Shown: positions 1 through 5,745 of the stretch, in pieces
How positions within the stretch are numbered: the first letter of the stretch is position 1
Layout: each line of letters starts with the position of its first letter
Assembly: GCA_046760505.1 (NCBI GenBank)
Contig: JBHIEG010000064.1
Span: forward strand, 1 to 5,799
DNA: 5,799 bases
Origin: CAYFZR01 sp046760505 [NCBI: Candidatus Hydrothermarchaeota archaeon]
GTDB lineage: Archaea > CAYFZR01
Reading direction: 5' to 3'
Translations under genes and position numbers: made by a program
Notes under the pieces: model-generated
The model's database searches: none
Seen by the model: only the letters and a program-made list of their open reading frames with translations
What the model was told of the DNA's origin: nothing

Positions 1-174
1 TTGGTTGAACCTTATGACACTGAGGGGTTTGCAGACAGGATTATAAAAATTTTGCATGATCCTGAGATTGCACAAAAATTTGGCAATAAAGGAAAGGAAA
101 CCGTCAGAAAGAATTTTCTCATAACACGACTCCTTTTGGATTATTTGGACTTACTGATCGATATAACAGAATGA
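1..174 (+). CDS. treT: GT4 glycosyltransferase, TreT-like trehalose synthase (C-terminal end only)
   Basis: The reading frame is open from the first base and ends in TGA at 172-174, so only the last 57 residues are present and the start lies outside the window. The visible part begins VEPYDTEGFADRI and continues with a 'DPEIAQKFGNKGKE' stretch, the usual end of the UDP/ADP-sugar-binding Rossmann lobe of GT4 glycosyltransferases. It closes with a NFLITRLLLDYLDLL helix, which I associate with archaeal trehalose glycosyltransferring synthase (TreT). TreT joins a nucleotide-activated glucose to glucose to make trehalose in the cytoplasm. The trehalose-phosphate synthase remnant directly downstream fits a trehalose locus. 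A different GT4 enzyme remains possible because the catalytic part is not in the window. Family membership is firm; the TreT assignment is moderate. Confidence 0.65.
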   Translation: MVEPYDTEGFADRIIKILHDPEIAQKFGNKGKETVRKNFLITRLLLDYLDLLIDITE

Positions 175-175
175 A

Positions 176-358
176 TAATGCGTACCAGTAGATATATGAA
201 GATTACAACGATATAATGAGGCATGGGCAAGTGATTTTATTGACAATTTGAGGGAGATCAAAAAACTTCAGCAGGATTTGAATACGAGGAGATTCACTAA
301 GGAGCGGGAAAAGAAACTATTGGATGACTATCTTAAAACTGACCATATGATTAAGTGA
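176..358 (+). pseudogene. otsA: Remnant of trehalose-6-phosphate synthase: end of synthase domain plus linker to a phosphatase domain
   Basis: The frame from 200 to the TGA at 356-358 reads RYNEAWASDFIDNLREIKKL and then a charged stretch containing NTRRFTKEREKKLLDDYL. The W-A-x-x-F-x-x-x-L helix is the usual end of GT20 trehalose-6-phosphate synthases. The following T-R-R-x-T...LL-x-x-Y segment resembles the linker that, in bifunctional synthase/phosphatase proteins, precedes the LLDYDGTL motif of the HAD phosphatase. That phosphatase motif is absent here: the similarity stops at about 350-358, where transposase-like sequence begins on the other strand. Just upstream, a second frame (IYEDYND, about 193-213) looks like the preceding residues displaced by an indel, and there are stops on both sides. 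I see no start codon with a ribosome site. This is a non-functional internal fragment. The synthase match is reasonably secure; the bifunctional origin is inference from the linker. Confidence 0.6.
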
Positions 359-927
359 TTAAACTACATATCATCTCAATAGAGCATAGATTAACCACAT
401 CATAGAAGATTACTCCAAGTTTATGGCTTAAATACTCAATACAATTGCCTAAGACAGCCATTAACAAAATAAACCCATTATTACTCTCTTCAGACCTTAA
501 ATAGTTACCTTCTAGTCTCAGTACAAATCCCTCTGTGCTTCTCCTCAATCCAGAATCTCTTCAAATACTCAATTATGTACTCTGGCTTCTTTTTCCTGTC
601 CGTTGAAACGAGATAGTAAGGTTCTTTTTTATCTTCCATGATGCATTTTACTATCTTAACTCTACCAGCTTCTGGAATGTTAACGACTTTAGAAGTGAAA
701 CTCCTTTCCTTCAACACTCTTACACAGCTTTTCGCCCTTAAACAACTCTTCTATCTTGAATTCCCTACCAAAAATCTCTATTTTCCAGTTTTTCTTTATT
801 CTGCCAATATAAAGACATTTTCCTTTGCTCTCCTAAGAATTTCTTTGTTGTCACAAAGCCGTCACCTATACTAATCTTCTGGCTTACCAATTATTTCACC
901 AAACTTTGGGCAAGCAACACCATCTAG
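351..927 (-). pseudogene. Degenerate DDE transposase (IS4-like superfamily), several frameshifts
   Basis: Transposase-like protein can be followed on the minus strand only by changing frame several times. From about 927 down, one frame gives LDGVACPKFG, and a second at 866-847 gives GDGFVT, probably the region of the second catalytic Asp. A third has NKEILRRAKENVFI. The frame at 808-692 reads IGRIKKNWKIEIFGREF and ends in TAA at 689-691. The frame at 717-505 contains the YYLVSTD strand and FWIEEKHR, where the W-x-x-E type glutamate would be the last DDE residue. The frame at 548-351 has LRSEESNNGFILL, typical of the C-terminal helical end. Taken together the pieces are collinear with one IS4-like transposase lacking its N-terminus and first Asp. 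I could not see terminal inverted repeats or a target duplication, so the family is left open. The element is dead and truncated on at least one side. Confidence 0.7.
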
Positions 928-1399
928 AACTTTACATCCTCCTTCGCCTCTCTCAGGAAACGAGGAACCAAAGAGAGATGATAGTCATGTATCCAAATTA
1001 AATCATAATTCTTCTCTTCCAGGATCGCCTTAGCAAACTTTTCATTGACTTCATTGTATGTTTTCCAGTTTTTCGGATCAATGATTGCGTTCTCCACAAA
1101 AAAATGGAAAACGGACCAGAGAACTCTATTAGAAAATCCATGATAATAATTATTGATATCTTCCTCAGAAAGCCAAACTCTCTTGAGAGTATAAGACGGA
1201 TCTTCAGGGGGGACTCTTATCTTATTTTCCGAGTCGACGACTTCTCTGTCAGCATTACCGCTTCCCATGCGACCCATAGTCCATTGGTAACCTGTATCAC
1301 AGGATATAAAGCAGAGACCAAACCTCTAAGAGTCCTTTTGCATACAAGCTTACCGCGTGATTTTTCATGCTCATAGGGCTCGCGATTAGAAACTTACAT
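924..1399 (-). pseudogene. otsA: Trehalose-6-phosphate synthase (GT20), N-terminal fragment with broken start and frameshift
   Basis: Trehalose-6-phosphate synthase transfers glucose from a nucleotide sugar to glucose-6-phosphate. An ATG at 1399-1397 is followed at once by TAA. The same frame then continues VSNREPYEHEK, GLVSALYPV and NGLWVAW, the expected N-terminal motifs including the SNR loop. Near 1265-1268 the match jumps one base into the frame GSGNADREVVDSENKIRVPP, then YTLKRVWLS, YHGFSNRVLW and IWIHDYHLSLVPRFLRE; the HDYHL motif contributes to sugar-phosphate binding. Similarity stops at the TAG at 924-926, about a third of the way through a normal ~470-residue domain, where the transposase remnant begins. 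The C-terminal nucleotide-sugar-binding lobe is missing. A piece of that lobe's end, from the same kind of enzyme, lies at 176-358 on the opposite strand, implying rearrangement. Clearly recognisable, clearly non-functional. Confidence 0.85.
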
Positions 1400-1457
1400 T
1401 AATTTATTATTTCCCAATATTTTTTGACCGTAAAAACTTCCTTTGGTAAATCTTTTT

Positions 1458-2804: not shown

Positions 2805-2855
2805 TCTTACCCCCCATTCGATTTCTTGTTAAGCTAAGATGGTTTTTAAAAAAAT

Positions 2856-3121
2856 TCAAAGCTCTTTTTTAATAGCATTTACAAGACTTTCTTTGTCAGG
2901 TCTTCCAACGAATTCTATGCTTCCATTTATTACTATGGTAGGAACAGCATATATTCCATATTTCAGAGCTTTTGAGGAGTTTTTTTAACGTCTATTATTT
3001 CTATTTTCGTTACATCTCCCATCTCTTTCCCCAACTCTTCAATAACGCTCTTTACAAGATCTATGGTTGGATTACAGGAGGAACAGTCTTGAAACATGAA
3101 TATCTCTATCTTAACAGACAT
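2856..3121 (-). pseudogene. Small thioredoxin/glutaredoxin-like protein with CxxC, one frameshift
   Basis: From ATG 3121 the frame reads MSVKIEIFMFQDCSSCNPTI, giving a thioredoxin-fold beta strand followed by a C-S-S-C redox motif (residues 13 and 16). It continues EIIDVKKTPQKL into TGA. One base later in register the family continues without interruption: KYGIYAVPTIVINGSIEF (with the expected cis-Pro in V-P-T), GRPDKESL and a final helix ending at TGA 2856-2858. Restoring one base near 2975 (AAG-GCT for AAGCT) rejoins the halves into an 88-residue protein, the normal size for archaeal mini-thioredoxins that reduce disulfides in the cytoplasm. It starts 19 bases after the stop of the upstream 134-residue gene, so they may have shared a transcript. 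The ribosome site is weak (GAAGTG). Fold assignment is solid; whether the 1-base loss is real or a sequencing error is open. Confidence 0.8.
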
Positions 3122-3140: not shown

Positions 3141-3545
3141 TTATATTATCCATATCTTCTTTTTTAGCATATCTTTTTCCGATTGTCTAGAAATAGAGTC
3201 TCTTTCCCTTATTTCCTCATAACTTCCCCAGAAATGATTGATAGGTTTAGAAGGCTTAAGCTCATAGACCCTCAAATTCGTGTCATCTCGAAACGTTAGC
3301 CTTTCATCTACATAAACTCTTTTATTTAGGAGATAGACTTTATATGAGTAATATTTTACATCTTTCTCATGTATTAATCCTTCTCTTGAGAAATGATTCA
3401 GGCAAAGCCATCCAACATTTGGGAGATATAAGGCATTGTTTTTGTAATCTCTTATATCCCATCTTAGGCCTCCTTTTTTTCTATATCCCTTGAAAAGCTC
3501 TTTGTTACATTTAATGCATATACATGTGCTTTCTTCTATCTTCAT
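3141..3545 (-). CDS. Orphan 134-residue protein with CxxC...CxxH putative metal site
   Basis: I do not recognise this family. The protein opens MKIEESTCICIKCNKELFKG, with C10-I-K-C13 forming a zinc-knuckle-like pair, and 34 residues later has C48-L-N-H51 in the context GWLCLNHF. A single treble-clef or ribbon-type zinc site is plausible. The remainder is rich in Tyr, Lys, Arg and Glu, with a beta-strand-like YYSYKVYLLNKRVYV segment. It ends in a charged helix (YEEIRERDSISRQSEKDM) and a basic/hydrophobic tail (KKKIWII). There is no signal peptide or membrane helix. It reads on the same strand as the thermosome, 45 bases downstream behind a T-rich spacer, and just upstream of the thioredoxin-like gene. 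The ATG at 3545 abuts a GGGGGA run with essentially no spacer, an unfavourable distance for initiation, and I see no better in-frame start. Open frame and composition favour a real gene. Confidence 0.65.
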   Translation of the reverse strand: MKIEESTCICIKCNKELFKGYRKKGGLRWDIRDYKNNALYLPNVGWLCLNHFSREGLIHEKDVKYYSYKVYLLNKRVYVDERLTFRDDTNLRVYELKPSKPINHFWGSYEEIRERDSISRQSEKDMLKKKIWII

Positions 3546-3590: not shown

Positions 3591-5237
3591 TTAGAACTCC
3601 TCCTCTCCTAATCCGTAACCTGGCGCTCCCGGAGCGCCTGGCGGACCTTCTGCCTCTCTCTTAGAGGCTGCTATCACATCGTCTATCCTTAATATCATGT
3701 TTGCTGCTTCACTAGCTGATTTTATTGCCTGGGTCTTAGTTCTTAGGGGTTCTATCACTCCGCCTTTAATCATATTGTTCGGTTTTCCTGTAAAAACGTT
3801 CAATCCGAAGTATGCACCCTCTTCATGAGCAGATCTTAACTCTACCAAAGTATCGATGGGATCTAGCCCTGCGTTCTCCGCCAAGGTCCTTGCTATTACA
3901 TCGATTGCATCTGCAAATGCGTTAATGGCTAGCTGCTCTCTTCCTCCCACTGTTTCAGCATAGCTCCTCAATAACCTTGAAACCTCTATCTCTGGTGCTC
4001 CTCCACCTGGAACAACTTTTTTGTCTTCTATGACGCTCTCTACAACTCTTATTGCGTCGTTTACGCCTCTTTCTACTTCAGATACGACGTGCTCTGTTCC
4101 TCCTCTTATGAACAATGTAACCGCTTTAGGATACTTGCACTCTGTAACAAATACCATCTCTTCGCCTGCAATCTTTTTCTCCTCTAAAAAACCTGCTTCT
4201 CCAAGATCATCAGGAGTAAGATCATCCAAACTGTTAACTATGCTTGCTCCTGTGGCTTTTGCTAGTTTTTCCATGTCAGATTTCTTTACTCTTCTAACCG
4301 CGAATATGTTCTCTTTTGCCAAGAAGTGCTGAGCCATATCGTCGATTCCCTTCTGACAGAATACTACGTTAGCACCAGATTTCTTGATTTTGTCTACCAT
4401 TTCCTTTAGCATTTTCTCTTCTTCGTCTAAAAATGCCTTTAACTGAGTGGGATCTGTAATTCTTATTTCAGCGTCTGTTTCTGTATCCGTTACTTCTATA
4501 GCGGCGTTTATCAAAGCTATTTTCGCATCCTTTACGGTTTTAGGCATCCTTGGGTGAACTCTCTCTTTATCTAACACTATTCCCTCTATAAGTTCAGTAT
4601 CGCTTACGCTTCCTCCTTCCTTCTTTTCTATCTTTATGTCATCTGGATCTACCTTATATTCGCCATCTATCTCCTCTGCTACTAATTTTACCGCCTTAAC
4701 TGCCAAATCTCCCAAATGTTCCTTGGCGATTTCGGCTCCCTTTCCAGTCATAGCTGTTACTGCGACTTGTTTGAGCATGTCTTCATCGTCTATTGATATA
4801 TCGATAGCCATATTTTCGAGTATCTCGTTAGCCTTATCCGCTGCAAGCCTGTAACCTGAGGCTATTACGGTAGCGTGTATGTTCTGATCCAATAGTTCCT
4901 CTGCTTTCTTTAGCAATTCTCCTCCTATAACTACCGCAGTTGTTGTACCATCTCCTACCTCATCGTCCAAGGTCTTTGCAACCTCTACCATCATTTTAGC
5001 AGCGGGATGCTCAACGTCTATATCTTTAAGAATAGTCACTCCATCGTTTGTGATTGTTATGTCTCCCAGAGAGTCCACAAGCATTTTATCCATGCCTTTA
5101 GGTCCTAGTGTAGTTCTTACAGCCTCTGCAATTGCTCTTGCAGCAAAAATATTATTACGCATCGCGTCTCTTCCTGTGTATCTCGTAGCGCCTTCTGGAA
5201 TTATTAAAACAGGCTTTCCACCAAATTGTGCTGTCAA
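3591..5237 (-). CDS. ths: Thermosome subunit (group II chaperonin)
   Basis: This is a cytosolic ATP-dependent folding chaperonin that forms double-ring complexes with a built-in lid. From the TTG start it has 548 residues, full length for the family. Motifs numbered from that start: QPVL-type opening [11 protein letters not shown] (residues 5-15), TLGPKGMDK (43-51), NDGVT (64-68), the phosphate-binding GDGTTT (95-100), the apical domain in the middle, ERGVNDA (389-395) with the catalytic-type Asp at 394, GGGAPE (411-416) and [15 protein letters not shown]. The C-terminal tail is [18 protein letters not shown] rather than the GGM repeats common in thermosomes. An upstream ATG (5261) would add eight residues (MGKKGDDT). 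I prefer TTG 5237 because GGAGATGAT (5249-5241) is a strong Shine-Dalgarno eight bases before it, and because homologues usually begin just before A-Q-x-G-G-x-P-V-L. The gene follows aIF1A within 30 bases, so it is cotranscribed. No defects seen. Confidence 0.97.
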
Positions 5238-5240
5238 AGT

Positions 5241-5249
5241 ATCATCTCC
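5241..5249 (-). promoter_or_regulatory. Shine-Dalgarno that decides the thermosome start (TTG 5237)
   Basis: GGAGATGAT on the minus strand differs by one base from the ideal complement (GGAGGTGAT) of the archaeal 16S 3' end. Its GGAG core lies eight bases upstream of TTG 5237. It is downstream of the alternative ATG 5261, so it can only serve the internal start. The ATG has no comparable motif in front of it. Confidence 0.7.
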
Positions 5250-5267
5250 TTTTTTTCCCATAATAAC

Positions 5268-5540
5268 TTAATAGTAGCCCTTTCTCTTGAGCCAAGCTGC
5301 TTCAGATTTTGTATATCTCCAAACAACGTCAGCTTTATCATTTTGAAAATCCCAAGGCTTTACAATAACCAAATCTCCCTCTCTTATCCGTATCCTTCTT
5401 CTCATTTTTCCAGGAATTCTACATAATCTCTTAGTATCATCAAAACAATCAACCTTTATTCTACTTGCTCCAAGCATTTGTACGACAATACCAAAAACTT
5501 CCTCTTCTTTTGGTAATCTAGCTCTTATTACCTCTTCCAA
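5268..5540 (-). CDS. eif1A: Translation initiation factor aIF1A
   Basis: This is the archaeal homologue of eIF1A and bacterial IF1. It is an OB-fold protein that binds the A-site region of the small ribosomal subunit and helps initiator tRNA and mRNA selection. From TTG 5540 it has 90 residues: [20 protein letters not shown], then [11 protein letters not shown], the basic [20 protein letters not shown] signature with IVKPW, and the C-terminal KADVVWRYT...WLKRKGYY typical of aIF1A. The frame extends upstream to another TTG at 5570, but no ribosome site precedes that codon, whereas AGGTGGT (5553-5547) sits seven bases before TTG 5540. The longer form would add ESKDLGGNC, which is not typical of the family. 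It ends six bases before the first possible thermosome ATG and 30 before the preferred TTG, pointing to a shared transcript. Identity is firm, the start moderately so. Confidence 0.95.
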
Positions 5541-5546
5541 ACAGTT

Positions 5547-5553
5547 ACCACCT
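5547..5553 (-). promoter_or_regulatory. Shine-Dalgarno favouring the internal aIF1A start (TTG 5540)
   Basis: AGGTGGT on the minus strand matches the AGGTG part of the consensus and lies at suitable spacing before TTG 5540. It falls inside the longer open frame that begins at TTG 5570, and is the main reason to prefer the shorter protein. Confidence 0.55.
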
Positions 5554-5576
5554 AAGTCCTTAGATTCCAAATATTC

Positions 5577-5690
5577 TTATGAAGGAACTTTGATTTGTTT
5601 GCCACATTCGGGACATTTGGCTGTTTGACCCGCCATATCGTCTGGAGCATTCAAATTTACCCCGCATTCAGGACAATTGAACTTTATCAC
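5577..5690 (-). CDS. 37-residue double-CxxC zinc-ribbon miniprotein
   Basis: The frame from GTG 5690 to TAA 5577 encodes 37 residues: MIKFNCPECGVNLNAPDDMA followed by GQTAKCPECGKQIKVPS. Two CPECG knuckles (Cys 6/9 and 26/29) form a classic four-cysteine zinc ribbon with a short, Asp-containing loop. There is essentially nothing else in the protein, so it is a free-standing ribbon. An ideal Shine-Dalgarno, GGAGGTGA (5703-5696), lies five bases upstream of the start, which strongly supports translation despite the small size. It sits between the FKBP-type gene and aIF1A on the same strand, 36 bases before the aIF1A start. Similar ribbons occur as separate proteins or as modules of larger proteins and often bind nucleic acid or protein partners; a specific role cannot be given. 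It is short enough to be skipped by automatic gene callers. Confidence 0.8.
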   Translation of the reverse strand: MIKFNCPECGVNLNAPDDMAGQTAKCPECGKQIKVPS

Positions 5691-5695
5691 GCTTG

Positions 5696-5703
5696 TCACC
5701 TCC
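5696..5703 (-). promoter_or_regulatory. Consensus Shine-Dalgarno of the zinc-ribbon miniprotein
   Basis: GGAGGTGA on the minus strand is a perfect complement to the archaeal anti-Shine-Dalgarno and lies five bases before GTG 5690. It is the main support for calling such a short gene with a GTG start. Confidence 0.75.
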
Positions 5704-5745
5704 ATCCAGCAATACAATACTTTTTTATTGTTTCAAAAAGCATTT

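What the first reader, a model, noticed from the sequence alone, without database searches (positions are those of the whole stretch)
176..1399. Two oppositely oriented pieces of trehalose-6-phosphate synthase face each other across a dead transposase
The N-terminal third of a GT20 synthase (minus strand, 1399-924) and the end of a synthase with its phosphatase linker (plus strand, 176-358) both run 3'-ward into the same transposase remnant (351-927). Both matches stop within a few bases of the transposase-like sequence. A simple insertion would leave the two parts in the same orientation, so an inversion or recombination between element copies, or two different gene copies, is implied. The plus-strand fragment begins right after a TreT-like gene, suggesting loss of the OtsA/OtsB trehalose route beside a TreT-type route.
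Basis: partly seen in the sequence, partly recalled or inferred. Interest (0 to 1): 0.6.

Follow-up and report, generated by a model that had tools for sequence, protein, structure and literature searches.

The report
Decayed trehalose gene cluster, two genes
Beside a trehalose-making gene in an archaeon lie the broken ends of two different trehalose genes that face each other, with scraps of a jumping gene and another gene wedged between them; it looks like ordinary gene decay, and no flipped gene is needed to explain it.

Summary
Both trehalose-6-phosphate synthase (GT20) pieces are real, but most likely come from different genes. The minus piece (about 1408-930) is the N-terminal third of a standalone-type OtsA: it shares standalone-type motifs and scores 254-317 against 22 standalone ORFs versus 199-231 against 12 classical fused enzymes. 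The plus piece (200-337) is the interdomain linker of a fused TPS-TPP enzyme: 54-117 against those 12, at most 33 against 23 standalone ORFs, at most 50 for 200 shuffles. A tree agrees, but its AU test is not decisive (p 0.151). So no inversion is needed. Relatives show treT followed by tpsp on one strand (L150) and treT facing otsB-otsA (L113). Between the pieces lies the right half of an insertion sequence, IS4-like by weak match, whose right end is exactly at 338. Likely history: insertion into tpsp, then several deletions. Loss of the OtsAB route genome-wide cannot be tested, since no genome is held. The source is an archaeon without a close relative in the collections searched. Interest is low.

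The parts
1..174 (+). C-terminal 57 residues of a TreT-like GT4 trehalose synthase (gene runs off the window's left edge)
   Evidence: NCBIfam NF041139 E 3.1e-8, profile 367-410 of 412; 51% over 49 residues to L113 TreT, 45% over 55 to L125 TreT
176..337 (+). Remnant of a fused TPS-TPP (tpsp) gene: end of the TPS domain and the linker, readable from 200; TPS body and TPP domain absent
   Evidence: 48% over 48 residues to L148 residues 452-499; scores 54-117 against 12 of 12 classical fused proteins, shuffle maximum 50; 176-199 has no clear match
338..868 (-). Right half of an insertion sequence (531 window bases, matching positions 599-1149 of a full-length copy); IS4-like by weak match; C-terminal part of the transposase with frame changes; left half missing
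872..945 (-). C-terminal end of a small zinc-ribbon protein gene (border with the OtsA piece lies within 930-945)
   Evidence: DNA match to G115 (935-872, 78%) and G425 (945-864); shuffled control; gene found in 2 of 392 genomes
930..1408 (-). N-terminal third of a standalone-type OtsA (GT20), in two frames (1408-1265 and 1289-930)
   Evidence: PF00982 E 9.7e-27; 50% over 111 residues to L128, 62.5% over 48 and 55% over 73 to L142; standalone-type motifs

Best explanation
The stretch is a graveyard of a trehalose gene cluster. Ancestrally a treT gene was followed on the same strand by a fused synthase-phosphatase gene (tpsp), and a standalone otsA, probably with otsB, lay on the opposite strand facing them. 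An insertion sequence entered tpsp at the linker, and its right end is preserved to the base. Deletions then removed the tpsp synthase body up to the treT stop, the tpsp phosphatase part with the left half of the element, and the last two thirds of otsA, leaving also a scrap of a zinc-ribbon gene between the element and otsA. The pieces face each other because they are two different, originally convergent genes. Neither can make an active enzyme. TreT, if intact beyond the window, would be the remaining local route to trehalose. Shown here: the identity of each piece, the exact right end of the element, and the subfamily difference by score and motif. Inferred: the order of events, the former gene order in this lineage, and TreT taking over.
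For: Subfamily split on 37 GT20 ORFs: the linker scores 54-117 against 12 of 12 classical fused proteins and 23-33 against 23 standalone ORFs (2 of these are cut before the C-terminus); the N-terminal piece scores 254-317 against 22 standalone ORFs (the 23rd lacks that part) and 199-231 against the 12 fused. Motifs, read off the alignment by eye: the window has NREPYxH and GSGNADREVVDSENKIRVPPEDPSYTLKR like the standalone proteins (with variation); the 12 fused proteins have NRLP and GW(P/S/L)G. In the tree the 12 fused proteins form a 100/100 group without the window. Gene-order precedents: L150 has treT then tpsp, same strand, about 90 bases apart; L113 has treT facing otsB-otsA. Element right end exactly where tpsp similarity stops. 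One element copy in the window; no inverted repeat at the piece borders.
Against: The AU test does not reject grouping the N-terminal piece with the fused clade (p 0.151), and the tree puts it in a 96/96 set with L128, L143 and the 12 fused proteins, apart from the other standalone OtsA; the piece fills 23% of the columns and long branches are flagged. The best NCBIfam model for the N-terminal piece is the bifunctional PRK14501 (2.9e-31) before OtsA (1.3e-27), though the standalone L128 shows the same ranking, so this does not discriminate. With whole fused proteins as tblastn queries, two of four (L148, L156) listed the linker and two (L147, L150) did not, although pairwise scores for these are 95 and 76. 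No locus with both a tpsp and an otsA facing each other was seen. The zinc-ribbon scrap adds a junction that the history does not explain. Read support for the junctions cannot be checked.
Confidence: 0.78

Rival explanations
1. One GT20 gene was split by the insertion sequence and one part inverted, or two element copies recombined, so that its two ends now face each other.
For: The two pieces are complementary in principle (N-terminal third, and the C-terminal end of the synthase domain with linker). The AU test does not reject putting the N-terminal piece with the fused clade (p 0.151). Odd fusions with standalone-type N-termini exist (L138, L142), but neither matches the linker (29 and 26).
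Against: The pieces match different subfamilies by score and motif. Only four short imperfect inverted pairs in 1-1700, none at the borders, and no second element copy in the window. A scrap of an unrelated gene lies on one side only.
Confidence: 0.08
2. The arrangement is an artefact: a chimeric join from whole-genome amplification or assembly, for example in a single-cell or metagenome contig, brought unrelated stretches together.
For: Five pieces and four junctions, the junctions within about 0.8 kb (174-945). Frames are broken in otherwise well-kept thioredoxin and radical-SAM genes, the thioredoxin break and one of two radical-SAM breaks at T7 and T9 runs, so the sequence may carry indel errors. 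The source and reads are unknown, and no genome is held.
Against: The element's right end falls exactly where tpsp similarity stops, as in a natural insertion. treT followed by tpsp is a natural order (L150). The element has diverged about 24% from its best relatives and holds several indels.
Confidence: 0.12

Closest known systems
Archaeal loci with treT next to tpsp or otsAB (L150, L193, L194 from the phylum of an Archaeoglobales genome; L113 from a Hadesarchaea genome)
   Same: Same gene families near each other; L150 has treT then tpsp on one strand as in the window; L113 has treT facing otsB-otsA
   Different: The genes have open frames there; none of these loci holds both GT20 types
Thermoproteus tenax msc-gt-tpsp operon (PMC3634074; abstract, passages and section 22 seen)
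   Same: A GT4 glycosyltransferase gene directly upstream of a fused tpsp
   Different: Functional there; that GT is described as closest to PimA and shows no synthase activity alone, whereas the window's GT4 end resembles TreT
[quoted passage not shown]
   Same: An N-terminal synthase fragment in an archaeon that also has a TPSP fusion
   Different: Only the legend and section text were seen; no element or zinc-ribbon scrap is mentioned there
   Same: 75-76% DNA identity over about 338-868, same right end
   Different: The window copy lacks its left half; those two full-length copies are also broken in frame

Membership tests
Standalone OtsA (GT20) | GT20 N-terminal domain match | tested here: met
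   PF00982 E 9.7e-27
Standalone OtsA (GT20) | Standalone-type N-terminal motifs and higher scores than to classical fused enzymes | tested here: met
Standalone OtsA (GT20) | Place in a tree apart from the fused clade | tested here: inconclusive
   Outside the 100/100 fused group, but AU p 0.151 for joining it
Standalone OtsA (GT20) | Complete catalytic domain and open frame | tested here: not met
   Ends near profile position 166 of 473, two frames: a truncated pseudogene
Fused TPS-TPP (PRK14501 type) | Linker between TPS and TPP domains | tested here: met
   two of four whole fused queries list it; NCBIfam alone only E 0.024
Fused TPS-TPP (PRK14501 type) | TPS body and TPP domain present | tested here: not met
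   No other plus-strand match in the window for the four classical fused queries at E 1 or better
IS4-family insertion sequence | Transposase above the curated family cut-off | tested here: not met
   Stitched fragment 32.5 bits against 152 (NF033591); Pfam DDE_Tnp_1 17.2 against 23; N-terminal half of a full-length copy gave no transposase family
IS4-family insertion sequence | Defined element ends | tested here: met
   Right end shared with full-length copies; the left end is lost in the window
TreT | TreT_GT1 N-terminal domain plus GT4 C-terminal domain | tested here: inconclusive
   Only the last 57 residues lie in the window: NF041139 E 3.1e-8, 32.8 bits against a whole-protein cut-off of 775

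The most novel reading that the evidence does not exclude
A deep archaeal lineage once carried three parallel trehalose routes in one cluster (treT, a fused tpsp and a standalone otsA facing them), and both GT20 genes died, leaving TreT alone: a snapshot of replacement of the OtsAB route by TreT.
Probability: 0.3. Interest if true: 0.35.

Novelty: new member of a known kind. Interest (0 to 1): 0.2.

Why it matters
It shows that two synthase pieces lying head to head need not mean an inversion: subfamily typing of short fragments can tell two genes from one. If the rest of the genome lacks GT20, it would be a case of an archaeon dropping the OtsAB route and keeping TreT. As it stands it is local gene decay.

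Tried and rejected
Inversion of one gene: disfavoured on score and motif, with the tree not decisive. Reading 872-935 as transposase N-terminus: rejected; the full-length element L170 does not contain it, while a zinc-ribbon gene does. A relative of ORF 3141-3545 in genome contigs: none confirmed among 19 pattern matches. Window genes near the thermosome in the 80, then 90 loci held: only weak radical-SAM hits and aIF1A in L067 and L079. Transposase relatives in 28 genomes of the Hadesarchaea phylum (no positive control), in plasmids and in viral contigs: none. GT20 in the 23 genomes of the phylum of G006: 2, both fused. Thermosome tree: window in no starred group, nearest by path sequences from the Hadesarchaea phylum. 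MSBL1 was considered as the source from recall; a paper on MSBL1 single cells mentions trehalose synthesis (PMC4725937, passages), but nothing here tests that identity. The linker match running past 338 to 'LNY' is taken as chance, because it lies inside the element. A query labelled TPSP_fused was a wrong ORF, so its rows are ignored; corrected.

Full report
Setting. The window is archaeal: it has a thermosome gene with an open frame (3591-5261, minus) and aIF1A (5268-5570, minus). No genome is held for it. In a 91-row quick tree it lies in no starred set; the nearest rows by path come from the phylum of a Hadesarchaea genome. So the source is an archaeon without a close relative in the collections searched. 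I call the group searched through G004 'the Archaeoglobales phylum' after the record of L007; GTDB's Halobacteriota is my recall of its name.

The minus-strand piece. ORF 924-1277 hits GT20 (PF00982, E 9.7e-27, profile 65-166 of 473). A second frame, 1408-1265, carries the start of the domain, so the piece covers the N-terminal third with one frame change near 1265-1289. The match ends at about 930, just before the usual WHIPW stretch. In the Archaeoglobales phylum 73 of 392 sampled genomes match it at E 0.001 or better, the best being L128 at 50%.

The plus-strand piece. Frame 200-337 reads RLQRYNEAWASDFIDNLREIKKLQQDLNTRRFTKEREKKLLDDYLK. The NCBIfam hit is weak (E 0.024) but falls on the linker of the bifunctional model, profile 444-493 of 729. 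Among 37 GT20 ORFs from fetched loci, many of them close relatives of one another, the linker scored 54-117 for 12 of 12 classical fused proteins and 23-33 for 23 standalone ORFs (L103 and L104 are cut by contig ends and lack the C-terminus). It scored 29 and 26 for two odd fusions (L138, L142). The best of 200 shuffled linkers against the fused set was 50, so the two weakest fused scores (54, 57) are only just above chance and the stronger ones well above. In a tblastn of whole fused proteins against the window, L148 and L156 listed the linker while L147 and L150 did not.

Two genes rather than one. On the same ORFs the minus piece scored 254-317 for 22 standalone ORFs (L124 lacks that region), 199-231 for the 12 classical fused proteins, 284 for L138 and 216 for L142. 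By eye in the alignment the window shares an NR(E/Q)PYxH-like start and a GxxAD...P..P.Y.L(K/R)R-like stretch with standalone OtsA, with variation, whereas the 12 fused proteins have NRLP and GW(P/S/L)G. The NCBIfam ranking, PRK14501 before OtsA, does not discriminate, since the standalone L128 ranks the same. In a 34-row tree (L103, L104, L124 and L142 dropped; L138 counted with the standalone) the 12 fused proteins form one group with 100/100 support that excludes the window. The window lies in a 96/96 set with L128, L143 and that group, and its nearest row is L128. Forcing the window into the fused side was not rejected (p 0.151), the window fills 23% of the columns, and the program warns of long branches. 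Scores and motifs therefore carry the argument.

Gene order elsewhere. L150 has treT (stop at 2685) followed by tpsp (first ATG at 2597) on the same strand; Pfam confirms TreT_GT1 plus GT4, and GT20 plus trehalose-phosphatase. L193 has tpsp then treT. L194 has otsA-otsB-treT. L113 has treT facing otsB-otsA across other genes. TreT was found beside 2 of the 12 classical fused genes, with unequal flanks. No locus was seen with both GT20 types. G416 and G010 each gave two GT20 matches at separate places, which I did not compare further. In print, T. tenax has a GT4 gene upstream of tpsp in an operon, and M. thermophila is drawn with an N-terminal tps fragment (PMC3634074, abstract, passages and section 22).

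The element. A stitched reading of the broken transposase hits IS4-type families weakly and below the cut-offs, and the N-terminal half of a full-length copy hits no transposase family, so the family is not settled. Relatives were found in 17 of 392 genomes at E 0.001 or better, several of them weak; the best copies are 75-77% identical in DNA. A full-length copy (L170) is about 1145 bp with ends ACTGACGGTGTGAACG and, complemented, ACTGACCATGTGAATC (12 of 16 the same by eye). Window 868-338 aligns to positions 599-1149, and the terminal ATGGTCAGT ends exactly at 338, where the tpsp match stops. Of 20 fetched loci tried, L170 itself included, the last 120 bases aligned in 14, and 9 of these show GGTCAGT at the end. 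The rest of the window has no further copy. Within 1-1700 there are four short imperfect inverted pairs of 14-19 bases, none at the piece borders.

A fifth piece. Bases 872-935 are not in the element. They match the end of a 70-residue zinc-ribbon gene in G115 (64 bases, 78%) and, over 945-864, a relative in G425. The best score is 85 against at most 31 for 300 mononucleotide shuffles, tested against those two loci only. That gene was found in 2 of 392 genomes. The border with the OtsA piece lies within 930-945, where either reading fits.

History. The simplest account is: treT-tpsp on one strand with otsA facing; insertion of the element into tpsp at the linker; deletions at 174-200, 868-872 and 930-945. 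The order of events is inferred. Why a zinc-ribbon scrap is present is not explained.

Caution on decay. Thioredoxin (3121-2855) and the radical-SAM gene (2804-1565) are also broken by frame changes in otherwise well-kept reading; the thioredoxin break and one of two radical-SAM breaks lie at T7 and T9 runs. So the frame change in the OtsA piece may be a sequencing error; the truncations are not explained that way. An assembly or amplification chimera cannot be excluded without reads.

Verdict. The inversion reading is not needed, and two different genes is the best-supported option. Loss of the OtsAB route is plausible locally and untested genome-wide.

Noticed in passing
window 2855-3121 and 1565-2804: A thioredoxin-like gene and a B12-binding radical-SAM gene are each broken by frame changes, the thioredoxin at a T7 run and one of two radical-SAM breaks at a T9 run, in otherwise well-kept sequence; sequencing indels or recent decay.
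   Followed up: partly
   Followed up: partly
G010:C12:43951-44112 (listed): A short GT20-like stretch with a stop codon in the genome of L015 (Candidatus Alkanophaga volatiphilum), which also holds a fused tpsp beside treT (L193): possibly another dead N-terminal synthase fragment.
   Followed up: no
L170 689-1837, L181 458-1605: Two full-length copies of the element, 92.5% identical over 1152 bases, both with the transposase frame broken near position 600, where the window copy begins; two-frame gene or decay not settled. Several copies lie at contig ends in G147 and G349.
   Followed up: partly
L197 1096-1722 and L195 5597-6571: The rare zinc-ribbon gene lies within about 0.5 kb of a similar stretch in two genomes, transposase-like by eye only, in different relative orientation.
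   Followed up: no
window 5577-5717: A 46-residue zinc-ribbon-like ORF upstream of aIF1A; no match at E 0.01 in the 90 loci, only weak ones (E 0.05 or worse).
   Followed up: no
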